From the NCBI GenBank assembly GCA_027063755.1, contig JAMORD010000040.1:1-48162 (forward strand): a stretch of 48,162 nucleotides of DNA. Reading direction: 5' to 3'. Shown piece by piece: positions 3,677-13,658 of this stretch. The stretch comes from a bacterium (GTDB lineage Bacteria > Coprothermobacterota > Coprothermobacteria > Coprothermobacterales > JAADFF01). A program made the position numbers and the translations under genes. The notes under the pieces were generated by a model, which did no database searches, was not told where the DNA came from, and worked only from the letters and a program-made list of their open reading frames with translations. Numbering within the stretch: position 1 is the stretch's first letter; every line of letters starts with the position of its first letter.

Positions 3677-4924
3677 GTGAAGAGATATTTCCGTTTTACA
3701 TCTGAGTCCGTTACAGAGGGCCATCCCGACAAGGTAGCCGACCAGATTTCTGATGCTATTCTTGATGCTTACTTGTCAGGTGATCCATACAGCCGTGTTG
3801 CTGCCGAGACCGCAGTCAATACGGGTATTGTCTATGTGTTTGGTGAGATTACATCTCAGGCAAATCCAGATCTTGATGAGGTTATACGAAATGTCATAAG
3901 GAATATTGGCTATACAAAGGCAGAGTATGGATTTGCCGCAGATTCTGTAGGTATCATATTTGGACTAAAACGCCAGTCTCCCGATATAGCTATGGGTGTT
4001 AACAAGTCTCTTGAGGCTAAAGTGGGAGAGGCTGATACAGAGGAGGAGGCCATTGGTGCGGGAGACCAGGGCATGATGATAGGTTATGCTGTTGCGGAAA
4101 CCGATGTTTATATGCCTCTTCCCATTTACCTTGCCCACAAGCTTGTAAAGAGACTTGCCGATGTCCGTAAGCGTGGTGACCTTCCATTTCTTAGACCTGA
4201 TGGAAAGAGTCAGGTTACTGTTAAATATGAGCTTGATACAGAAACAGGTATTAGAAGACCAATAAAGATTACCGATGTTGTTGTATCTGCTCAGCACGAT
4301 GATATGGACATGGACGAGCTGAGGGAGAAAATTCTTAAGCATGTCATTCTTCCTGTGCTTCCTGAGAACCTTATGCCATCTAAATATGTTATCAATGTGC
4401 CAGAAGATGATCCTGCTATGGATAGTGACACATTGAGAATATTCATCAATCCAACAGGTAGATTTGTTATAGGTGGCCCTAAGGGTGATGCAGGTCTTAC
4501 TGGTCGTAAGATTATGGTTGATACATATGGTTCTATGGCAAGCCACGGTGGTGGTGCATTCAGCGGAAAAGACCCAACGAAGGTTGACCGTTCCGCAGCA
4601 TATATGGCAAGATATATTGCCAAAAATATTGTTGCCGCAGGGCTTGCTTACGAGGCAACAGTACAGCTTGCGTATGCTATTGGTGTAGCCGAACCTGTGT
4701 CTCTTATGATTGATACCCATGGTACGGGCAAGGTACCTGAAATAGAGATTGCCAAGTGGTTTGATGAAAATGTTGATATGACTCCAGGTGGCATTATAAA
4801 GAGGTTCAATCTTAGAAGACCTATTTATCTGCAGACTGCTGCCTATGGTCACTTTGGTAGAGAAGGCTTCCCGTGGGAGGAAACGGATCTTGTAGATGAG
4901 CTCAGAAGACACTTTGGCCTATAA
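3677..4924 (+). CDS. metK: S-adenosylmethionine synthetase
   Basis: Makes S-adenosylmethionine from methionine and ATP. The 415-residue protein opens with [20 protein letters not shown] (ATP and metal site), then [12 protein letters not shown] and [20 protein letters not shown], the invariant motifs of bacterial MetK. It is slightly longer than the E. coli enzyme (384 residues). The GTG start follows a near-perfect AAAGGAGGTG site. No SAM riboswitch precedes it; there is no room between it and the upstream gene. Its end overlaps priA by 29 bases, and an intrinsic terminator lies 34 bases past its stop, inside priA. AhcY, encoded further along, handles the by-product of SAM-dependent methylation. 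Confidence 0.97.
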
Positions 4925-6974
4925 GTATTACAAAGTTGCTATTGATACACCACTGATAGGAGAGCGGTCGGTATTTACCTACCGCTCTCTTTTTTTACTA
5001 CATCCCGGTGACCTTGTTGTTGTGCCTGTAGGTAAAGGAGATGCTCCCAGATATGGCATTGTCGTGGGTATTGCCGATGAGGTACCCGCTGGTGTAGAGA
5101 TAAAAGATGTTTCACAGATTGCATATCGTGGACTGTTTCCCTGCTGGTATGTTCATTTTGTTTTAGATGTTTCCACAAAGTTGTTAATTCCACCATTTAA
5201 TATATTTCTCATATCCTACGATAAGACCCTTATGGATATATCCCGTATTAGATTGCTAATGTATACGGGGAAAACATGTCCTATTTCTAAAAGTCCAGCG
5301 CTGAACATACTTGCTTCCGATTTACAAGAGCATGGTTATTTGTTGTGGCGTGATGTAAGAAAGCGATTTGGCTCTAAGGCTGGCAGATTGTGGAAACGAC
5401 TCAAGGATGTGGGATGTGCTACAGAGACTATTGGTAGCCGTGCATATACCCCTAAGGCATCTGCCGATGTGTGGCTTGTGTGTCAAGATAAGGAATATCC
5501 CCTGAAAATAGCCCTTGCGTCGTTTGGTAGAAAGACAGTTTTACAGATGTTGGAGGTAGGACATTGTAAAGTTGTTTACTATACACCTGATAGTGCTGAA
5601 GACAGTGGTAATGAAAGAGGGCTTTTCACTATAAAAGGCACGATAGATGATGTCATAGAGTTGGTAAAAAAGATGAGTGGTAAGGTGGCCGTGGTGGTAA
5701 GAAATCGCTCGGTAGCCACAGGACTTGCCAAAAAGATGGTAAAACAGGGTATAAATCGGGTGATATCTCCTACGCTAAAGAAAAAAGAACTCCTCTCGTA
5801 TATTGTTTCAGACATAGCAGGTGTCTTTGTTGTTTCTCCAGGCTATGTCTTCAAACCGTGGCATGGTTTGTCTACTGTGATTTTCTATGATATAGACGAT
5901 GTGTCTATACCATTTAGAGATGGGGCATATATGAGTTTGCCAGAGGTTGTTCCTATTCTTAGAAGCTATGTAGACAGTATTTACTATGTTTCACCATTTC
6001 CTAATCTGTCTATTGCCGATATGTCTGATGATGTTAAGGAGCAATATATACCGGGTAATATTACCGTGATCTCTAAGCCCCGAGACGAAGTCTTGCACGC
6101 AGATACACTACAGAAGATGAAAGATATTGTAGGGCGTGGGGGCAGGGTGCTTGTGTATGCATCCCGCCTTGGTTATAAGACGGCAGTGCTATGTCGCCAT
6201 TGTGGTTATGTGCAGAAGTGTCCTGTGTGTGGTTTTACTATGGTTTATCACCTGAAAGAAGATAAGATGATATGCCACAGATGCGGACACACGGAACATC
6301 CTATGGCTACATGTCCTAAGTGTGGTTCTTCAGACATTGTTATGGTTGGTACGGGTATAGAGCTGATAGAGACAGAACTTCGCCGTGTGTTTGGTGATGC
6401 CCTTTGTGTACAAAGTTCCAGTCGGAGGAAAAAGTGCTCTCCAGATAAACCTGTTGTGCTTGCCACTTTTCGTTTTTATAGGTATTTTGTTGGGGATCCC
6501 TTTGATATGGTATATGTCCCCGATATGGACTTTATGTGGGCTATACCAGAATATACAGTATGGGAGACAACAATGAGAAGGATTCACCGCTTGGCTATGG
6601 CTGGTAAGGAAATTGTTATAGCCACAAATATTTCCGATGTGTGGAAAGAAAGATTGGATGAGAGATATATGTCGTTTGTAAGGCGAGAACTGGGTGAGAG
6701 AAAACTCCTATCTTTCCCCCCTTTTGTACCTATACTGACACTGGAGTATGGGGGAGAAGACTATAAAGATACCCGTGCCAAGGTTGAGCATTTCTATGAA
6801 ATATTGGTGAATTCTAAATGTGGTGAAGTATGGAATCCCGAGTTTGTAGGACGCTTTTCTACCGATGGATTATATCGCTGGATGATAAGACTTTCTCTTG
6901 ACACTATACCTTCTCAGATTATAGAATTCGTTGAAAAAACGCATCCTATAAGGTATTACCTTTCTACCCTTTAA
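4896..6974 (+). CDS. priA: PriA-family primosomal protein lacking helicase motifs
   Basis: PriA recognises stalled or repaired replication forks and reloads the replisome. This 692-residue protein keeps the N-terminal 3'-DNA-binding fold (about 5-110), a winged-helix-like segment (about 130-190) and the zinc-binding insert with all eight cysteines (433, 436, 442, 445, 460, 463, 473, 476). The helicase core is degenerate: no GxGKT loop around 190-215, DIDD at 332-335 in place of [12 protein letters not shown] in place of SATPSLES, and no GRAGR motif near 560. Actinobacterial PriA proteins are known to lack helicase motifs in a similar way. It overlaps metK by 29 bases; a TTG at 4914 is an alternative start. 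It probably acts as a structural loader, not a helicase. Confidence 0.85.
4958..4996 (+). terminator. Intrinsic terminator inside the 5' end of priA
   Basis: A 9-bp perfect stem (4960-4968 with 4981-4989, GAGAGCGGT/ACCGCTCTC) is extended outward by a G-T and an A-T pair. It has an inner 3-bp GGT/ACC stem with an ATTT loop and is followed directly by seven T residues (4990-4996). This is a textbook Rho-independent terminator, 34 bases after the metK stop. It is also coding sequence for PriA residues about 21-34, in a part that matches the PriA N-terminal fold. It probably ends most metK transcripts and lets a fraction continue into priA. Confidence 0.85.
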
Positions 6975-9304: not shown

Positions 9305-9861
9305 AGGGAGCAGCAGAGGAGATGTTAGAGAGCGGGAAAAAATGCACAAATATCAATGATGTTGTGGAGATTTTACCGGTAGATTACCTTATTGCAGGTG
9401 ACAAAAAGCATTCAGCAGAAGATTACCTGGTAGCTATTTTGTATATTGCTCGTAAGCGTGGCAAGTACGGTGGTTGTTGTCGTGCGAAGGAACTTGCTGA
9501 GGTGCTTGGGGTTAGTCGTTCTTCTGTTTCACAGGTTCTCAGAAGGTTGGCTAAGGCTGGCTATGTTGATTTTAAACCCTATGCCAGAAGCATTACATTG
9601 ACCGAGAAAGGTGCCCAACTTGCACAGAGTTTGCATGCACGACGTATTGTTGTTATGCTTATGGCTGATATTCTTGGTTTTACCGAAGAGCGATCAAAAG
9701 AGATAGCATGCTTTCTTGAGCATTTCATGAATGATGACGAAAGACGGGCCGTAGCGAGATTTATTTGCTTTATGCAGAATCATCCTGATATCATGAAAGA
9801 ATGGCTGGAGTTTAGAGGTGTAGATTTGGCAAAATTTACTTCTAAGATAAGAGAAGGATGA
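9289..9861 (+). CDS. DtxR/MntR-family metal-dependent regulator with N-terminal extension
   Basis: Likely repressor of the feo genes. After about 40 atypical residues, a DtxR winged helix runs from HSAEDYLVAILYI to ITLTEKG (41-108), followed by the dimerisation helices. The primary metal site residues Cys141, Glu144 and His145 (CFLEH) are present, matching Cys102, Glu105 and His106 of DtxR. The ancillary-site His79 and Glu83 positions are Arg119 and Val123. There is no SH3 domain, so this is the short form. A CC pair lies at 63-64. The ATG overlaps feoA by 16 bases, and the stop lies in the left arm of a terminator. Iron as the co-repressor is inferred from the neighbours and Cys141. Confidence 0.8.
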   Translation: MAEKIEGAAEEMLESGKKCTNINDVVEILPVDYLIAGDKKHSAEDYLVAILYIARKRGKYGGCCRAKELAEVLGVSRSSVSQVLRRLAKAGYVDFKPYARSITLTEKGAQLAQSLHARRIVVMLMADILGFTEERSKEIACFLEHFMNDDERRAVARFICFMQNHPDIMKEWLEFRGVDLAKFTSKIREG

Positions 9862-9882
9862 GGCTTAGGCCTCATCCTTCTT
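9852..9882. terminator. Bidirectional terminator between convergent genes
   Basis: A 13-bp perfect stem (9852-9864 with 9869-9881, core AAGGATGAGGC/GCCTCATCCTT) has a TTAG loop. It contains the stop codons of both converging genes (TGA at 9859-9861 on +, TAA at 9867-9865 on -). A short T-run follows on the + side and a few A/T bases on the other. It plausibly ends both transcripts. Confidence 0.8.
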
Positions 9883-12258
9883 TAGTTCGGGTATATACTT
9901 GGCAGGGTCATCGCCTCTGAAAACTGTTCTTAGGTTGTCTATATTTTTGTTTAGTATTTCTATTGCTATTTTTTCAGAGACTTCTTTTATGAACTTGTCT
10001 TCATCTGTGAGATGCATAAATATGAATCTGGTATATGCTTTGACAAGTTTGTAAAACGCCATAAGATATGGGACAGGTATTTTGTAATCAAAATATTTTC
10101 TAATACCTCTGTAATTTTCTATCAGTTCTTTGTAGGCCTTTTCAAGGTGTGTTGGAACAATAGTAGATGCTCTGTGAACGGTGAGACTTATAGCATTGGG
10201 ATTTTCTGTGTAAACAGCAACACCGCCAATTATAAACATAGCCTTAGCAGATTTGTATATGAAAGGAGAGTCTGGTAGATTTTTCTGAATCTTTATGGAC
10301 ATATCTCTCAACGCATCTAACATTGTGGCAGCGATATCTATGCGATTGGATTTGATAAGTTCAACAGATAAGTCTAAGGTGAATGACAGAATAGCTTCCA
10401 ATGTCGGTACATAATCTGTTACTTGTTTGGTGAGTTTGCCTACTATGTGCGAAAGACCATCTTTGAGAATGAAGTTGTCTATTGTGGCTTTATGAACGAC
10501 TTCGTGCTTAGGATATAGATTTCTTATCATGCGGAAGTAAAAGCTTAGTATGAGAATGATAATCTTATTTTTTACATCTATGTTGTAATTACCTGTGATA
10601 AAGTCTCGTGAAAAGATATTCAACTTTGTGGCTATAACACGAGGGGTCATAGGATTTTGGGGGTTCTCTGTATAAAAATCTACTATGTGTCTGATAGATG
10701 AAATAGCAAGAATTAGTAGAGAGTTATTTTTGTTGATGATAAATGTTTTCAGGGCATTAATATAAATGTCAAAGATATTTTCGGCAATGCGTACTTCGCC
10801 ACTAATGTCGGCTACCCTAAAAATTGTTTCCATAAAGTAGAGTGTCTGTTTAACAAAATATGCATATTCTTTGCTGTTGTCGTTGTAAGAAAGATAACTT
10901 CTGAAATACTTCTTTATAATCGTCTCGGCAGTGGTGATATCGCTATCTAATGTGCTTTTCTTTACGATGTCAGAAAGTTCTTCAACTCCTTGAGCGGCTT
11001 TATCGTATTCACCAAGTTCAAGGTATAGATGTATTTCACGATTAATCTTATCGGCTATTACCTGAATATTAAGTATTTTTATGATGTGGTATACATATGC
11101 AAATAATAAGATGATATTACCGAACATGAGCCATAAATTCCAGTTCATCTGAGGAAGTGGTAGTGGAATATTGTCGTTTGTTCTACCAAGTAAAAGGAAT
11201 GAGTGAATAATGGTGAATGCAGATACGGAGTATACAACCATGTTCCACGGGTCTTTGAAGTAGTATGTTGAGACCTTGGGAGTATATTTAGAGGCCATCA
11301 TCTGAACAGCTACCATAGACATAGATATCATGACACCGACAAGAGCAGCAAGTGCTGTTGCTGTTGCAGAATAGGTATATCTGGCCGTATCTTGATCTCC
11401 CCAAAAGATGAAGTTAATGGGATGGTGTGGATTAGATGGCCAATATGGATATACTTTTACAGGTGGGGGCATGTATAGCTGGTATACCCAGATGATGTAT
11501 GTAATAAGTAGAAGGAAAAACATAATAACGGCGGCAGGTATAAGATGATCGTATTTTGTTGGTTTCCATAGCCTGCTAATGGTAGGTAACTCTCCTGTAG
11601 TATGATATTTTATAATGCGTTTGAGTCCATCTTTAACAGCTTTGCTCTGGCTGAGGAATTTTACTCCAAGTTTGTATGAACCATCTTCAAGAGGAATGAC
11701 ATTGCGTATTTCTGCTTTAACATAGATACTGCGTTTGCTGCTGCCTGGCATGGGGAATTTGAGGTACACGATATCTCCTTTACTGGGAATATTATTACTT
11801 ATAGCATCTTTATCTATAATTATTCCTGCTCCGTAAATAGAGAGGTCTGTTGTTCTACCTTTGGTAATTATCTTAGTGGAGCGTGGGAGAAGACCAAAAG
11901 ATTTTGTAATTTTGTAGATGTATACCTCTGTTTCTATGGGGATACGAACAGAATTTCTTACAATAGCCTCTACCTGTTTGATAAGTTTTAGTGCAAGTAT
12001 GGTTTGTGATGTGTCAGGAAGGTATATTTGAGCTTCGTATGTAAAAATACCCTCTTCTGTTTCAAAGCGAATTTTTATATATTCATCCCAACGATGAGAA
12101 GTAAGGTCAAAAGGTACTGCTAAATATACTATGTGCTCTTTATGATTGACATTGATAACAAGTAATTTACGAGGTTTTTCATTATTATCTTCGAAAACCT
12201 CAACATATTTACCAAGTTCAGGAAGGTGAACAAATATATCTTCGTGTTTTTCACTCAT
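9865..12258 (-). CDS. PilZ domain fused to a DUF2254-like membrane protein
   Basis: The 797-residue protein starts with a YcgR-like N-terminal domain (about 10-95), then a PilZ domain with RNSVR (101-105) and DLSIYG (138-143), the RxxxR and DxSxxG residues that bind cyclic di-GMP, closing with LGVKFL (197-202). Four membrane segments follow (about 239-259, 297-321, 340-358, 375-395). The second and third, joined by QMMASKYTPKVSTYYFKDP, resemble DUF2254 proteins (the SPR motif region). A helical cytoplasmic tail of about 400 residues completes it. The start follows GAGGTGAT, which overlaps the end of the ktrB-like gene. I infer a membrane protein gated or regulated by c-di-GMP, possibly linked to ion balance. 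The fusion is unfamiliar to me. Confidence 0.75.
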   Translation of the reverse strand: MSEKHEDIFVHLPELGKYVEVFEDNNEKPRKLLVINVNHKEHIVYLAVPFDLTSHRWDEYIKIRFETEEGIFTYEAQIYLPDTSQTILALKLIKQVEAIVRNSVRIPIETEVYIYKITKSFGLLPRSTKIITKGRTTDLSIYGAGIIIDKDAISNNIPSKGDIVYLKFPMPGSSKRSIYVKAEIRNVIPLEDGSYKLGVKFLSQSKAVKDGLKRIIKYHTTGELPTISRLWKPTKYDHLIPAAVIMFFLLLITYIIWVYQLYMPPPVKVYPYWPSNPHHPINFIFWGDQDTARYTYSATATALAALVGVMISMSMVAVQMMASKYTPKVSTYYFKDPWNMVVYSVSAFTIIHSFLLLGRTNDNIPLPLPQMNWNLWLMFGNIILLFAYVYHIIKILNIQVIADKINREIHLYLELGEYDKAAQGVEELSDIVKKSTLDSDITTAETIIKKYFRSYLSYNDNSKEYAYFVKQTLYFMETIFRVADISGEVRIAENIFDIYINALKTFIINKNNSLLILAISSIRHIVDFYTENPQNPMTPRVIATKLNIFSRDFITGNYNIDVKNKIIILILSFYFRMIRNLYPKHEVVHKATIDNFILKDGLSHIVGKLTKQVTDYVPTLEAILSFTLDLSVELIKSNRIDIAATMLDALRDMSIKIQKNLPDSPFIYKSAKAMFIIGGVAVYTENPNAISLTVHRASTIVPTHLEKAYKELIENYRGIRKYFDYKIPVPYLMAFYKLVKAYTRFIFMHLTDEDKFIKEVSEKIAIEILNKNIDNLRTVFRGDDPAKYIPELKKDEA

Positions 12259-12272
12259 GCCTTTTTATCACC

Positions 12273-13658
12273 TCAGCTTACGGCTATATCATCTTCAGGC
12301 AGAGTATAAAGTTCTTTTGTTGGTGTGAAGATGTAGCCTGCTAAAATTGATATACTCCCAACTCTACCCATAAACATTGTTATTATTATTATAATCTTGC
12401 CGAGGCTATTAAGATGTGTTGTCAGTCCCCTTGACAGTCCCACTGTGCCTATAGCGGAGAATGCCTCAAAGAATATGTCTTCAAATGGGGCGTTAGGCAT
12501 GGCTATACTAAGGAACAATATGCTGATGCTAACTGTTATGAGTTGAAGAATAAATATGGCGAGAGCCAGTCTTACAGTGTCTTCTGCTATACGTCTGCTT
12601 CTCAGTATAACTGCTTTTTTGTTTTGCATGAAGTTTTGGAGATATTGAATAACTACTACTAATGTTGTTGTCTTTATACCACCAGCTGTACCACCGGGAG
12701 AGCCACCGACAAACATGAGAAATGTTATGAGCAGTATGCTGGGAAGCATCATTTTGCTCATATCCAGTGTGGCAAAACCGGCCGTTCTGGGTGTAACTGC
12801 CTGAAATAGCGATGCCCATATTTTTCCGCTCAGCGATAGATTGCCGATAGTATATGGGTTAATCCACTCAAATATGAGAAGCATAATGGCAGGAACGATA
12901 ATAAGTACCACTGTTGCCGATATAACAATGCGTGTATGAATAGATAGGTCGCTAATCTTCATGCGTCTGCCTTCACCTTTTAGCCCTGCTATAAACGATT
13001 TGGAATATTCAAGAAGCTCTTCCCATACAATAAATCCCAAACCGCCGGCAATAATGAGCCCCATAATAGTGAGGTTTATCAGAGGATCTGATACATAATC
13101 TGTAAGAGACTTAAAGCCTCCCATGATGTCAAATCCGGCATTGTTAAAAGCGGATACTGAATGAAATATGGATGCCCATAGCCCTTTTACTGGTCCGAAT
13201 TGGGGAATGAATCTAAAACCCAGTAAAATGGCGCCTATGATTTCAAAAAATAGAGATACTTTTAGGGAAAATAGCAGTAGGTTAGTGACACCACCAAAGT
13301 CTGGTTTGTTGAGCTGAACAGCTACAGATATTTTCTGTCTCAAACCTACTTGTTCCCCACGGGCAAGGTATATCAGGGTCATCATGGTGACATATCCCAG
13401 ACCGCCTATCTGTATGAGAAGTAGAATGACAAGCTGACCGAAAAATGAAAAGTATGTTCCCGTGTCCTTGACGACAAGTCCCGTGACACATACAGCCGAT
13501 GTTGATGTAAAGAGGGCATCAAGGAAACTTGTCAGTTTCCCGTGTGCCTGTGATATGGGAAGCATAAGAAGAGCGGTTCCCGTTAGTATGACGGCTAAAA
13601 AGCCCATTACAATATTACGTCTTGCCTCTGTTACTGGATCCAATTTACCCTTTGCCAT
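12273..13658 (-). CDS. KtrB/TrkH-family potassium channel subunit
   Basis: Membrane pore for potassium uptake. The 461-residue protein has four pore repeats with the family selectivity filters: TSAVCVTGLV, SAFNNAGFD, TPRTAGFAT and SAIGTVGLS, and the gate region GGSPGGTAGGIKT in the third repeat. Length and the CVTGL filter fit KtrB better than TrkH. No KtrA/TrkA RCK-domain partner is encoded in the window; the next gene in the operon is the PilZ membrane protein, 14 bases on. It begins 1 base after the ahcY stop, and the ribosome site AGGTGG is formed by the last codons of ahcY. Confidence 0.9.
   Translation of the reverse strand: MAKGKLDPVTEARRNIVMGFLAVILTGTALLMLPISQAHGKLTSFLDALFTSTSAVCVTGLVVKDTGTYFSFFGQLVILLLIQIGGLGYVTMMTLIYLARGEQVGLRQKISVAVQLNKPDFGGVTNLLLFSLKVSLFFEIIGAILLGFRFIPQFGPVKGLWASIFHSVSAFNNAGFDIMGGFKSLTDYVSDPLINLTIMGLIIAGGLGFIVWEELLEYSKSFIAGLKGEGRRMKISDLSIHTRIVISATVVLIIVPAIMLLIFEWINPYTIGNLSLSGKIWASLFQAVTPRTAGFATLDMSKMMLPSILLITFLMFVGGSPGGTAGGIKTTTLVVVIQYLQNFMQNKKAVILRSRRIAEDTVRLALAIFILQLITVSISILFLSIAMPNAPFEDIFFEAFSAIGTVGLSRGLTTHLNSLGKIIIIITMFMGRVGSISILAGYIFTPTKELYTLPEDDIAVS

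What the first reader, a model, noticed from the sequence alone, without database searches (positions are those of the whole stretch)
9865..12258. Fusion of a c-di-GMP-type PilZ domain with a DUF2254-like membrane domain
RNSVR (101-105) and DLSIYG (138-143) are the intact ligand residues of PilZ. Four membrane helices with a DUF2254-like loop and a 400-residue helical tail follow. I know PilZ linked to flagellar brakes and glycan synthases, not to this membrane domain, so it may be a new class of c-di-GMP effector.
Basis: partly seen in the sequence, partly recalled or inferred. Interest (0 to 1): 0.6.

Follow-up and report, generated by a model that had tools for sequence, protein, structure and literature searches.

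The report
PilZ c-di-GMP sensor fused to DUF2254
A bacterial protein carries an intact-looking receptor domain for the signal molecule c-di-GMP, fused to a membrane domain of unknown function and a long helical tail, and its gene directly follows a potassium-uptake gene, so it may let a global signal act on a membrane protein not yet known to be under such control.

Summary
The minus-strand gene at 9865-12258 encodes 797 residues: a YcgR-like N-domain plus PilZ domain (RNSVR 101-105, DLSIYG 138-143), four predicted membrane helices matching only the N-terminal half of DUF2254, and a ~400-residue alpha-solenoid tail. Aligned with ordinary YcgR proteins from the same order, the invariant columns include exactly the c-di-GMP ligand residues. 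The PilZ part of the predicted model overlays c-di-GMP-regulated BcsA at 1.6-2.1 A. The genome has 14 GGDEF matches (eight with exact GGDEF/GGEEF) and a separate flagellar YcgR. Binding is strongly supported by sequence; nothing was measured.

The fusion was found only in two species of one genus (Coprothermobacterota-like MAGs), not in about 1,150 other genome searches or a pattern-limited scan of 85,000 species. DUF2254 proteins with helical tails but no PilZ are scattered widely. No open-access paper held mentions both domains.

The gene is last in a tight, conserved ahcY-trkH-fusion operon; in seven related genomes the slot after trkH holds the K+-gating subunit gene ktrA/trkA. I favour a membrane c-di-GMP receptor acting on TrkH: binding likely, TrkH as target unproven (about 0.35). 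New variant of a known kind.

The parts
9865..12258 (-). PilZ-DUF2254-helical tail fusion gene, 797 aa
11965..12210 (-). YcgR-N-like (PilZN) beta domain, residues 17-98
   Evidence: Profile-profile match to YcgR family over residues 41-214; strands 18-77 in the model, low pLDDT; Foldseek match to MotI/DgrA 5vx6
11596..11958 (-). PilZ domain, residues 101-221
   Evidence: Pfam PF07238; BcsA PilZ overlay Z 13-14, rmsd 1.6-2.5 A
11944..11958 (-). RxxxR motif, RNSVR 101-105
   Evidence: Invariant with canonical YcgR
11830..11847 (-). DxSxxG motif, DLSIYG 138-143
   Evidence: Invariant D138, S140, G143
11071..11544 (-). Four predicted membrane helices, DUF2254 N-terminal half, residues 239-396; signature VAVQMMASKYTPK 316-328
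   Evidence: Pfam PF10011 positions 7-168/368; hhalign E=3e-12 against 29 tail-bearing DUF2254 proteins
9868..11067 (-). C-terminal alpha-solenoid (HEAT/ARM-like) tail, residues 398-797
   Evidence: Model secondary structure; structural overlays with HEAT/ARM proteins; no Pfam family above cut-off
12273..13658 (-). trkH, K+ uptake channel subunit, directly upstream (14-bp gap)
   Evidence: TIGR00933 348.8 bits, PF02386
13660..14916 (-). ahcY, adenosylhomocysteinase, first gene of the operon
   Evidence: TIGR00936, NF004005
12268..12273 (-). AGGTGA ribosome-binding site overlapping the trkH stop codon
   Evidence: read directly
9852..9881 (-). 13-bp-stem hairpin at the 3' end of the operon, between convergent genes

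Best explanation
The protein is a membrane-anchored c-di-GMP receptor. A YcgR-type PilZN-PilZ module in the cytoplasm binds c-di-GMP through R101/R105 and D138/S140/G143. Binding changes its position relative to the four-helix DUF2254 membrane domain and the cytoplasmic helical solenoid, and that change is passed to a partner in the membrane. The most likely partner is TrkH, encoded just upstream in the same operon, so that the c-di-GMP level adjusts K+ uptake alongside the usual RCK (TrkA) gating. Shown: domain content, motif conservation, purifying selection, presence of GGDEF proteins with intact motifs, conserved operon order. Inferred: ligand binding (about 0.85), membrane topology (about 0.85), TrkH as target (about 0.35).
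For: The signature residues are invariant with canonical YcgR; PilZ overlay on BcsA with 1.6-2.1 A rmsd over 94-97 residues, and Foldseek hits to PilZ-c-di-GMP complexes from a single-sequence model. 14 GGDEF matches in the genome, eight with exact GGDEF/GGEEF. A separate YcgR sits in the flagellar/chemotaxis locus, so this paralogue has another job. The ahcY-trkH-fusion order is kept in two species, with 1- and 14-bp gaps in the window. In seven related genomes trkH is directly followed by a ~220-aa KtrA-like gene; here trkH has left that locus, a two-RCK TrkA stays behind, and the fusion follows trkH. Independently, two Desantisbacteria genomes flank a tail-bearing DUF2254 gene with a CHASE2-nucleotide cyclase and a GAF-HD-GYP-type protein, linking this membrane domain to cyclic-nucleotide signalling.
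Against: No binding or transport data. The trkH link rests on one genus, and the neighbourhoods of about 24 other tail-bearing DUF2254 genes show no trkH or trkA. The genome still has a complete two-RCK TrkA, so TrkH does not need a substitute. The full model is of low confidence (mean pLDDT 57.8), especially residues 1-104.
Confidence: 0.5

Rival explanations
1. It is a c-di-GMP receptor, but its output is not TrkH: the DUF2254 domain with the solenoid is itself a channel, transporter or scaffold for a different partner, and trkH is only an operon neighbour.
For: PilZ evidence as above. Tail-bearing DUF2254 proteins without PilZ occur without trkH neighbours, and some sit beside nucleotide cyclases, HD-GYP-type proteins or a response regulator. 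The fusion gene has lower GC than its operon partners, 36% against 42-45%, as if inserted later.
Against: The tight operon is kept between species with saturated synonymous divergence, and the trkA slot comparison suggests a functional link.
Confidence: 0.35
2. The PilZ domain no longer binds c-di-GMP and serves only as a protein-protein module, as in XC1028-type PilZ proteins.
For: Val100 replaces the first Arg of RRxxxR; the N-domain diverged beyond Pfam PilZNR detection; an XC1028 structure is among the weaker Foldseek matches.
Against: All signature residues are invariant between species and with YcgR, whereas non-binding PilZ proteins have usually lost them (own knowledge).
Confidence: 0.1
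3. It is a membrane-tethered flagellar brake, a YcgR relative.
For: The N-terminal module is YcgR-like, and the organism has flagellar export genes resembling flhA, flhB and fliR near ycgR (read from sequence).
Against: A canonical YcgR is already encoded in the flagellar/chemotaxis locus; this gene is in an unrelated operon.
Confidence: 0.05

Closest known systems
YcgR / MotI (DgrA) flagellar brakes
   Same: PilZN plus PilZ order and all ligand residues; profile-profile match over both domains; MotI is the top Foldseek hit of the isolated N-terminus
   Different: YcgR and MotI are soluble and lack membrane helices and tail; the genome has its own YcgR at the flagellar locus
BcsA cellulose synthase and Alg44
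   Same: PilZ domain covalently attached to a membrane protein; best PilZ overlay, rmsd 1.6-2.5 A
   Different: No glycosyltransferase or membrane-fusion domain; PilZ is N-terminal; membrane domain is DUF2254
DUF2254 (PF10011 / IPR018723)
   Same: Homologous four-helix membrane region with the VQMxAxxY(T/S)P(K/R) signature
   Different: Canonical members match the whole 368-position profile and have no PilZ; here only positions 7-168 match and a solenoid follows. The knot described by modelling for canonical members (PMC11184937) was not tested here
Tail-bearing DUF2254 proteins without PilZ (unnamed; e.g. loci L037, L041, L042, L214)
   Same: Same half of DUF2254 followed by a long, apparently helical region
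   Different: No PilZ; their tail shares FFNTYxR, YQYR and FWExxDR motifs not recognisable in the window protein, and tail-only homology was not detected (E=0.085)

Membership tests
PilZ c-di-GMP receptor | RxxxR followed by DxSxxG at the right places of a PilZ fold | tested here: met
   R101, R105, D138, S140, G143 align with YcgR and are invariant
PilZ c-di-GMP receptor | PilZ beta-barrel fold | tested here: met
   Pfam E=2.9e-8; Z 14.3 and 1.6 A over 94 residues to BcsA PilZ, on a model with pLDDT about 70 here
PilZ c-di-GMP receptor | binds c-di-GMP | not testable with these tools
   Only indirect: the organism encodes GGDEF proteins with intact motifs
DUF2254 | match above the Pfam gathering score | tested here: met
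   61.7 bits against 28.8
DUF2254 | C-terminal half of the family profile | tested here: not met
   only positions 7-168 of 368 match
YcgR flagellar brake | PilZNR N-domain (PF12945) recognised | tested here: not met
   no PF12945 match in the window protein up to E=1, though profile-profile comparison covers part of it
YcgR flagellar brake | location in or near flagellar/chemotaxis genes | tested here: not met
   ahcY-trkH operon; the true ycgR lies in the flagellar locus
TrkH regulatory subunit of the TrkA/KtrA family | RCK (TrkA_N/TrkA_C) domain | tested here: not met
   no TrkA match in the fusion; TrkA is encoded elsewhere
Works like a TrkH regulatory subunit | gene directly downstream of trkH, conserved | tested here: met
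   two species, 14-bp gap in the window; position held by ktrA/trkA in relatives
Works like a TrkH regulatory subunit | physical or functional coupling to TrkH | not testable with these tools
   needs co-purification and K+ uptake assays

The most novel reading that the evidence does not exclude
A c-di-GMP-controlled K+ uptake system: a PilZ-DUF2254 membrane subunit took the operon slot of the RCK regulator and ties TrkH activity to c-di-GMP, which would also give the uncharacterised DUF2254 domain its first role, as a signal-output domain of cyclic (di)nucleotide pathways.
Probability: 0.28. Interest if true: 0.75.

Novelty: new variant of a known kind. Interest (0 to 1): 0.5.

Why it matters
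DUF2254 is a membrane family with thousands of members, no solved structure and no known function; only two open-access papers in the held library mention it, and neither was found to give it a function. A natural fusion to a receptor with a known ligand is a direct handle on it: it says which signal can drive the domain. If TrkH is the partner, c-di-GMP would join c-di-AMP as a direct controller of K+ uptake. A 2025 review names PilZ linked to poorly defined domains as a promising place to look for new receptors (PMC12564702).

Tried and rejected
Assembly artefact: rejected, because the full fusion exists in a second species at 88% identity on a separate contig. Wide distribution of the fusion: every other match to the PilZ-DUF2254 profile in 1,164 genome searches covers either the membrane part or a part of the PilZ region, never both; plasmids none; viral contigs none. 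The genome-contig scan returned one fusion (L071) plus Streptomyces and Desantisbacteria matches to the membrane part only; its peptide patterns were narrow, so absence there is weak evidence. Apparent 1,100-1,790-aa DUF2254 frames in one family look like open GC-rich sequence upstream of an ordinary start, not fusions (my reading; no domain search of the extensions). Link of DUF2254 to K+ transport in general: no trkH or trkA among neighbours of about 24 tail-bearing genes. Sequence relatives of the membrane part in PDB: none. A single-sequence PilZ search of PDB found nothing; the profile did. Structural overlays of the tail are with HEAT/ARM proteins in general and show no specific function. 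A bestrophin-like reading of the four-helix domain was considered from memory; no hit supported it, and the domain was not folded alone. Laying the whole genome in the Python box was not possible.

Full report
What is there. The minus-strand ORF 9865-12258 codes for 797 residues and starts with ATG behind an AGGTGA site that overlaps the stop of the gene before it. Pfam finds PilZ at 120-216 (E=2.9e-8) and DUF2254 at 240-419 (E=7e-17), the latter only over positions 7-168 of 368. NCBIfam has no family for it.

The PilZ part. Aligned with YcgR-type proteins of the same order and one further PilZ protein, the invariant columns are R101, R105, D138, S140, G143, G198, F201 and E223: the RxxxR and DxSxxG ligand motifs plus three others. 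A profile-profile comparison matches residues 41-214, so the region before PilZ is also YcgR-like (E=4.7e-6). A PDB search with the combined profile, which includes YcgR proteins, finds MotI (5vx6) and PP4397 (2gjg, 3kyf). In the predicted full-length model the PilZ part overlays BcsA PilZ at Z 13-14 and 1.6-2.5 A over 94-107 residues. A model made from the N-terminal 230 residues alone, although of low confidence (mean pLDDT 46.7), ranks MotI, PP4397-c-di-GMP, MrkH-c-di-GMP and Alg44 at the top. Val100 stands where many PilZ proteins have the first Arg of RRxxxR. From own knowledge of VCA0042 and PP4397, that points to one ligand per protomer.

The membrane part and tail. The hydrophobic pattern gives four membrane helices with the PilZ module and tail on the cytoplasmic side (residues about 239-261, 296-318, 339-358, 374-396; inference from sequence and the helices). 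The region is homologous to a group of DUF2254 proteins that carry long C-terminal regions (hhalign E=3e-12; the tail alone E=0.085, so tail homology is not shown). The tail folds in the model as about 17 helices in an alpha-solenoid. The overlays are with HEAT/ARM proteins and do not point to one function.

Distribution. The fusion is in the window genome and one sister species (JAADFF01, labelled Dictyoglomota bacterium at NCBI). One relative genome in the same order has a 1,424,912-base contig, which from memory is the size of the Coprothermobacter proteolyticus chromosome, so I place the window in a Coprothermobacterota-like group (inference). The fusion is absent from seven other genomes of the same order and phylum. 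In 1,164 genome searches with the fusion profile (some genomes counted twice) 66 matches by genome were found, but only these two have both halves. In 52 genomes of one other phylum 19 have DUF2254 proteins that match only the N-terminal half of the profile. None of the ten such proteins scanned singly with Pfam has PilZ.

Is the signal present? The window genome has 14 GGDEF matches; eight keep GGDEF or GGEEF exactly and two have GGDEI or GGEEM. No EAL match was found in this 88%-complete genome, one in the sister species; HD-GYP was not searched. Two other PilZ proteins are encoded, one of them a canonical YcgR (PilZNR + PilZ) in a locus with genes I read as flagellar and chemotaxis genes. 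So the machinery to make c-di-GMP is present and the flagellar role is taken.

Context. ahcY, trkH and the fusion gene lie head to tail with gaps of 1 and 14 bp and end in a strong hairpin at the border with the convergent DtxR-family gene. The order is the same in the sister species, although synonymous sites between the two copies of the fusion gene are saturated. In seven related genomes trkH is followed directly by a ~220-aa KtrA-like gene. In four of them, all in the sister family, this pair lies next to a nicotinate phosphoribosyltransferase-like gene and enolase (named by own reading). In the window genus that place keeps only a 454-aa two-RCK TrkA, while trkH lies at ahcY with the fusion behind it. 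Elsewhere, tail-bearing DUF2254 genes show no Trk neighbours, but two Desantisbacteria genomes flank one with CHASE2-guanylate/adenylate cyclase and GAF-HD_5 genes, and another has a response regulator beside it.

Reading. The best-supported reading is a membrane-bound c-di-GMP receptor. That it acts on TrkH is my preferred guess for the output, resting on operon order alone. DUF2254 has no solved relative by the sequence search here, and the only paper found that discusses it concerns predicted knots (PMC11184937). No held paper mentions PilZ with DUF2254, or c-di-GMP and PilZ with TrkH; subscription papers and InterPro architectures could not be checked.

Origin. The fusion gene has 36% G+C against 42% for the window and is the most AT-rich of the genes measured. 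Its absence from the sister family suggests gain in this genus, but the source is unknown.

Noticed in passing
window 12273-13658; L126 229-1593; L127 6490-7854: The trkH-trkA pair is split in this genus: a two-RCK TrkA remains at the locus that holds trkHA in the sister family, while trkH lies next to ahcY; relatives have a single-RCK KtrA-like protein.
   Followed up: partly
window 4896-6974 (+): PriA-like protein in which Pfam finds only the PriA zinc-ribbon and no DEAD/helicase domain; NCBIfam PriA scores are far below cut-off. It looks like a helicase-degenerate PriA, kept at 73% identity in the sister species.
   Followed up: no
G000 and G001 genomes: GGDEF proteins are expanded in this genus (14 and 19 matches) compared with 0-5 in other members of the order and phylum.
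   Followed up: no
L061 118-5833; L062 3148-8893: Conserved Desantisbacteria cluster: CHASE2-cyclase, tail-bearing DUF2254, DUF3307-type gene, GAF-HD_5, a candidate signalling operon for this DUF2254 group.
   Followed up: partly
L037, L041, L042, L144-L167, L207-L216: A widespread DUF2254 subgroup matches only the N-terminal half of PF10011 and carries a conserved C-terminal region (FFNTYxR, YQYRxLxE, FWExxDR); it deserves its own family model.
   Followed up: partly
L128 3150-5713: Canonical ycgR lies between a flhG-like gene and genes resembling cheB and cheR, with flhA-, flhB- and fliR-like genes nearby in L129.
   Followed up: no
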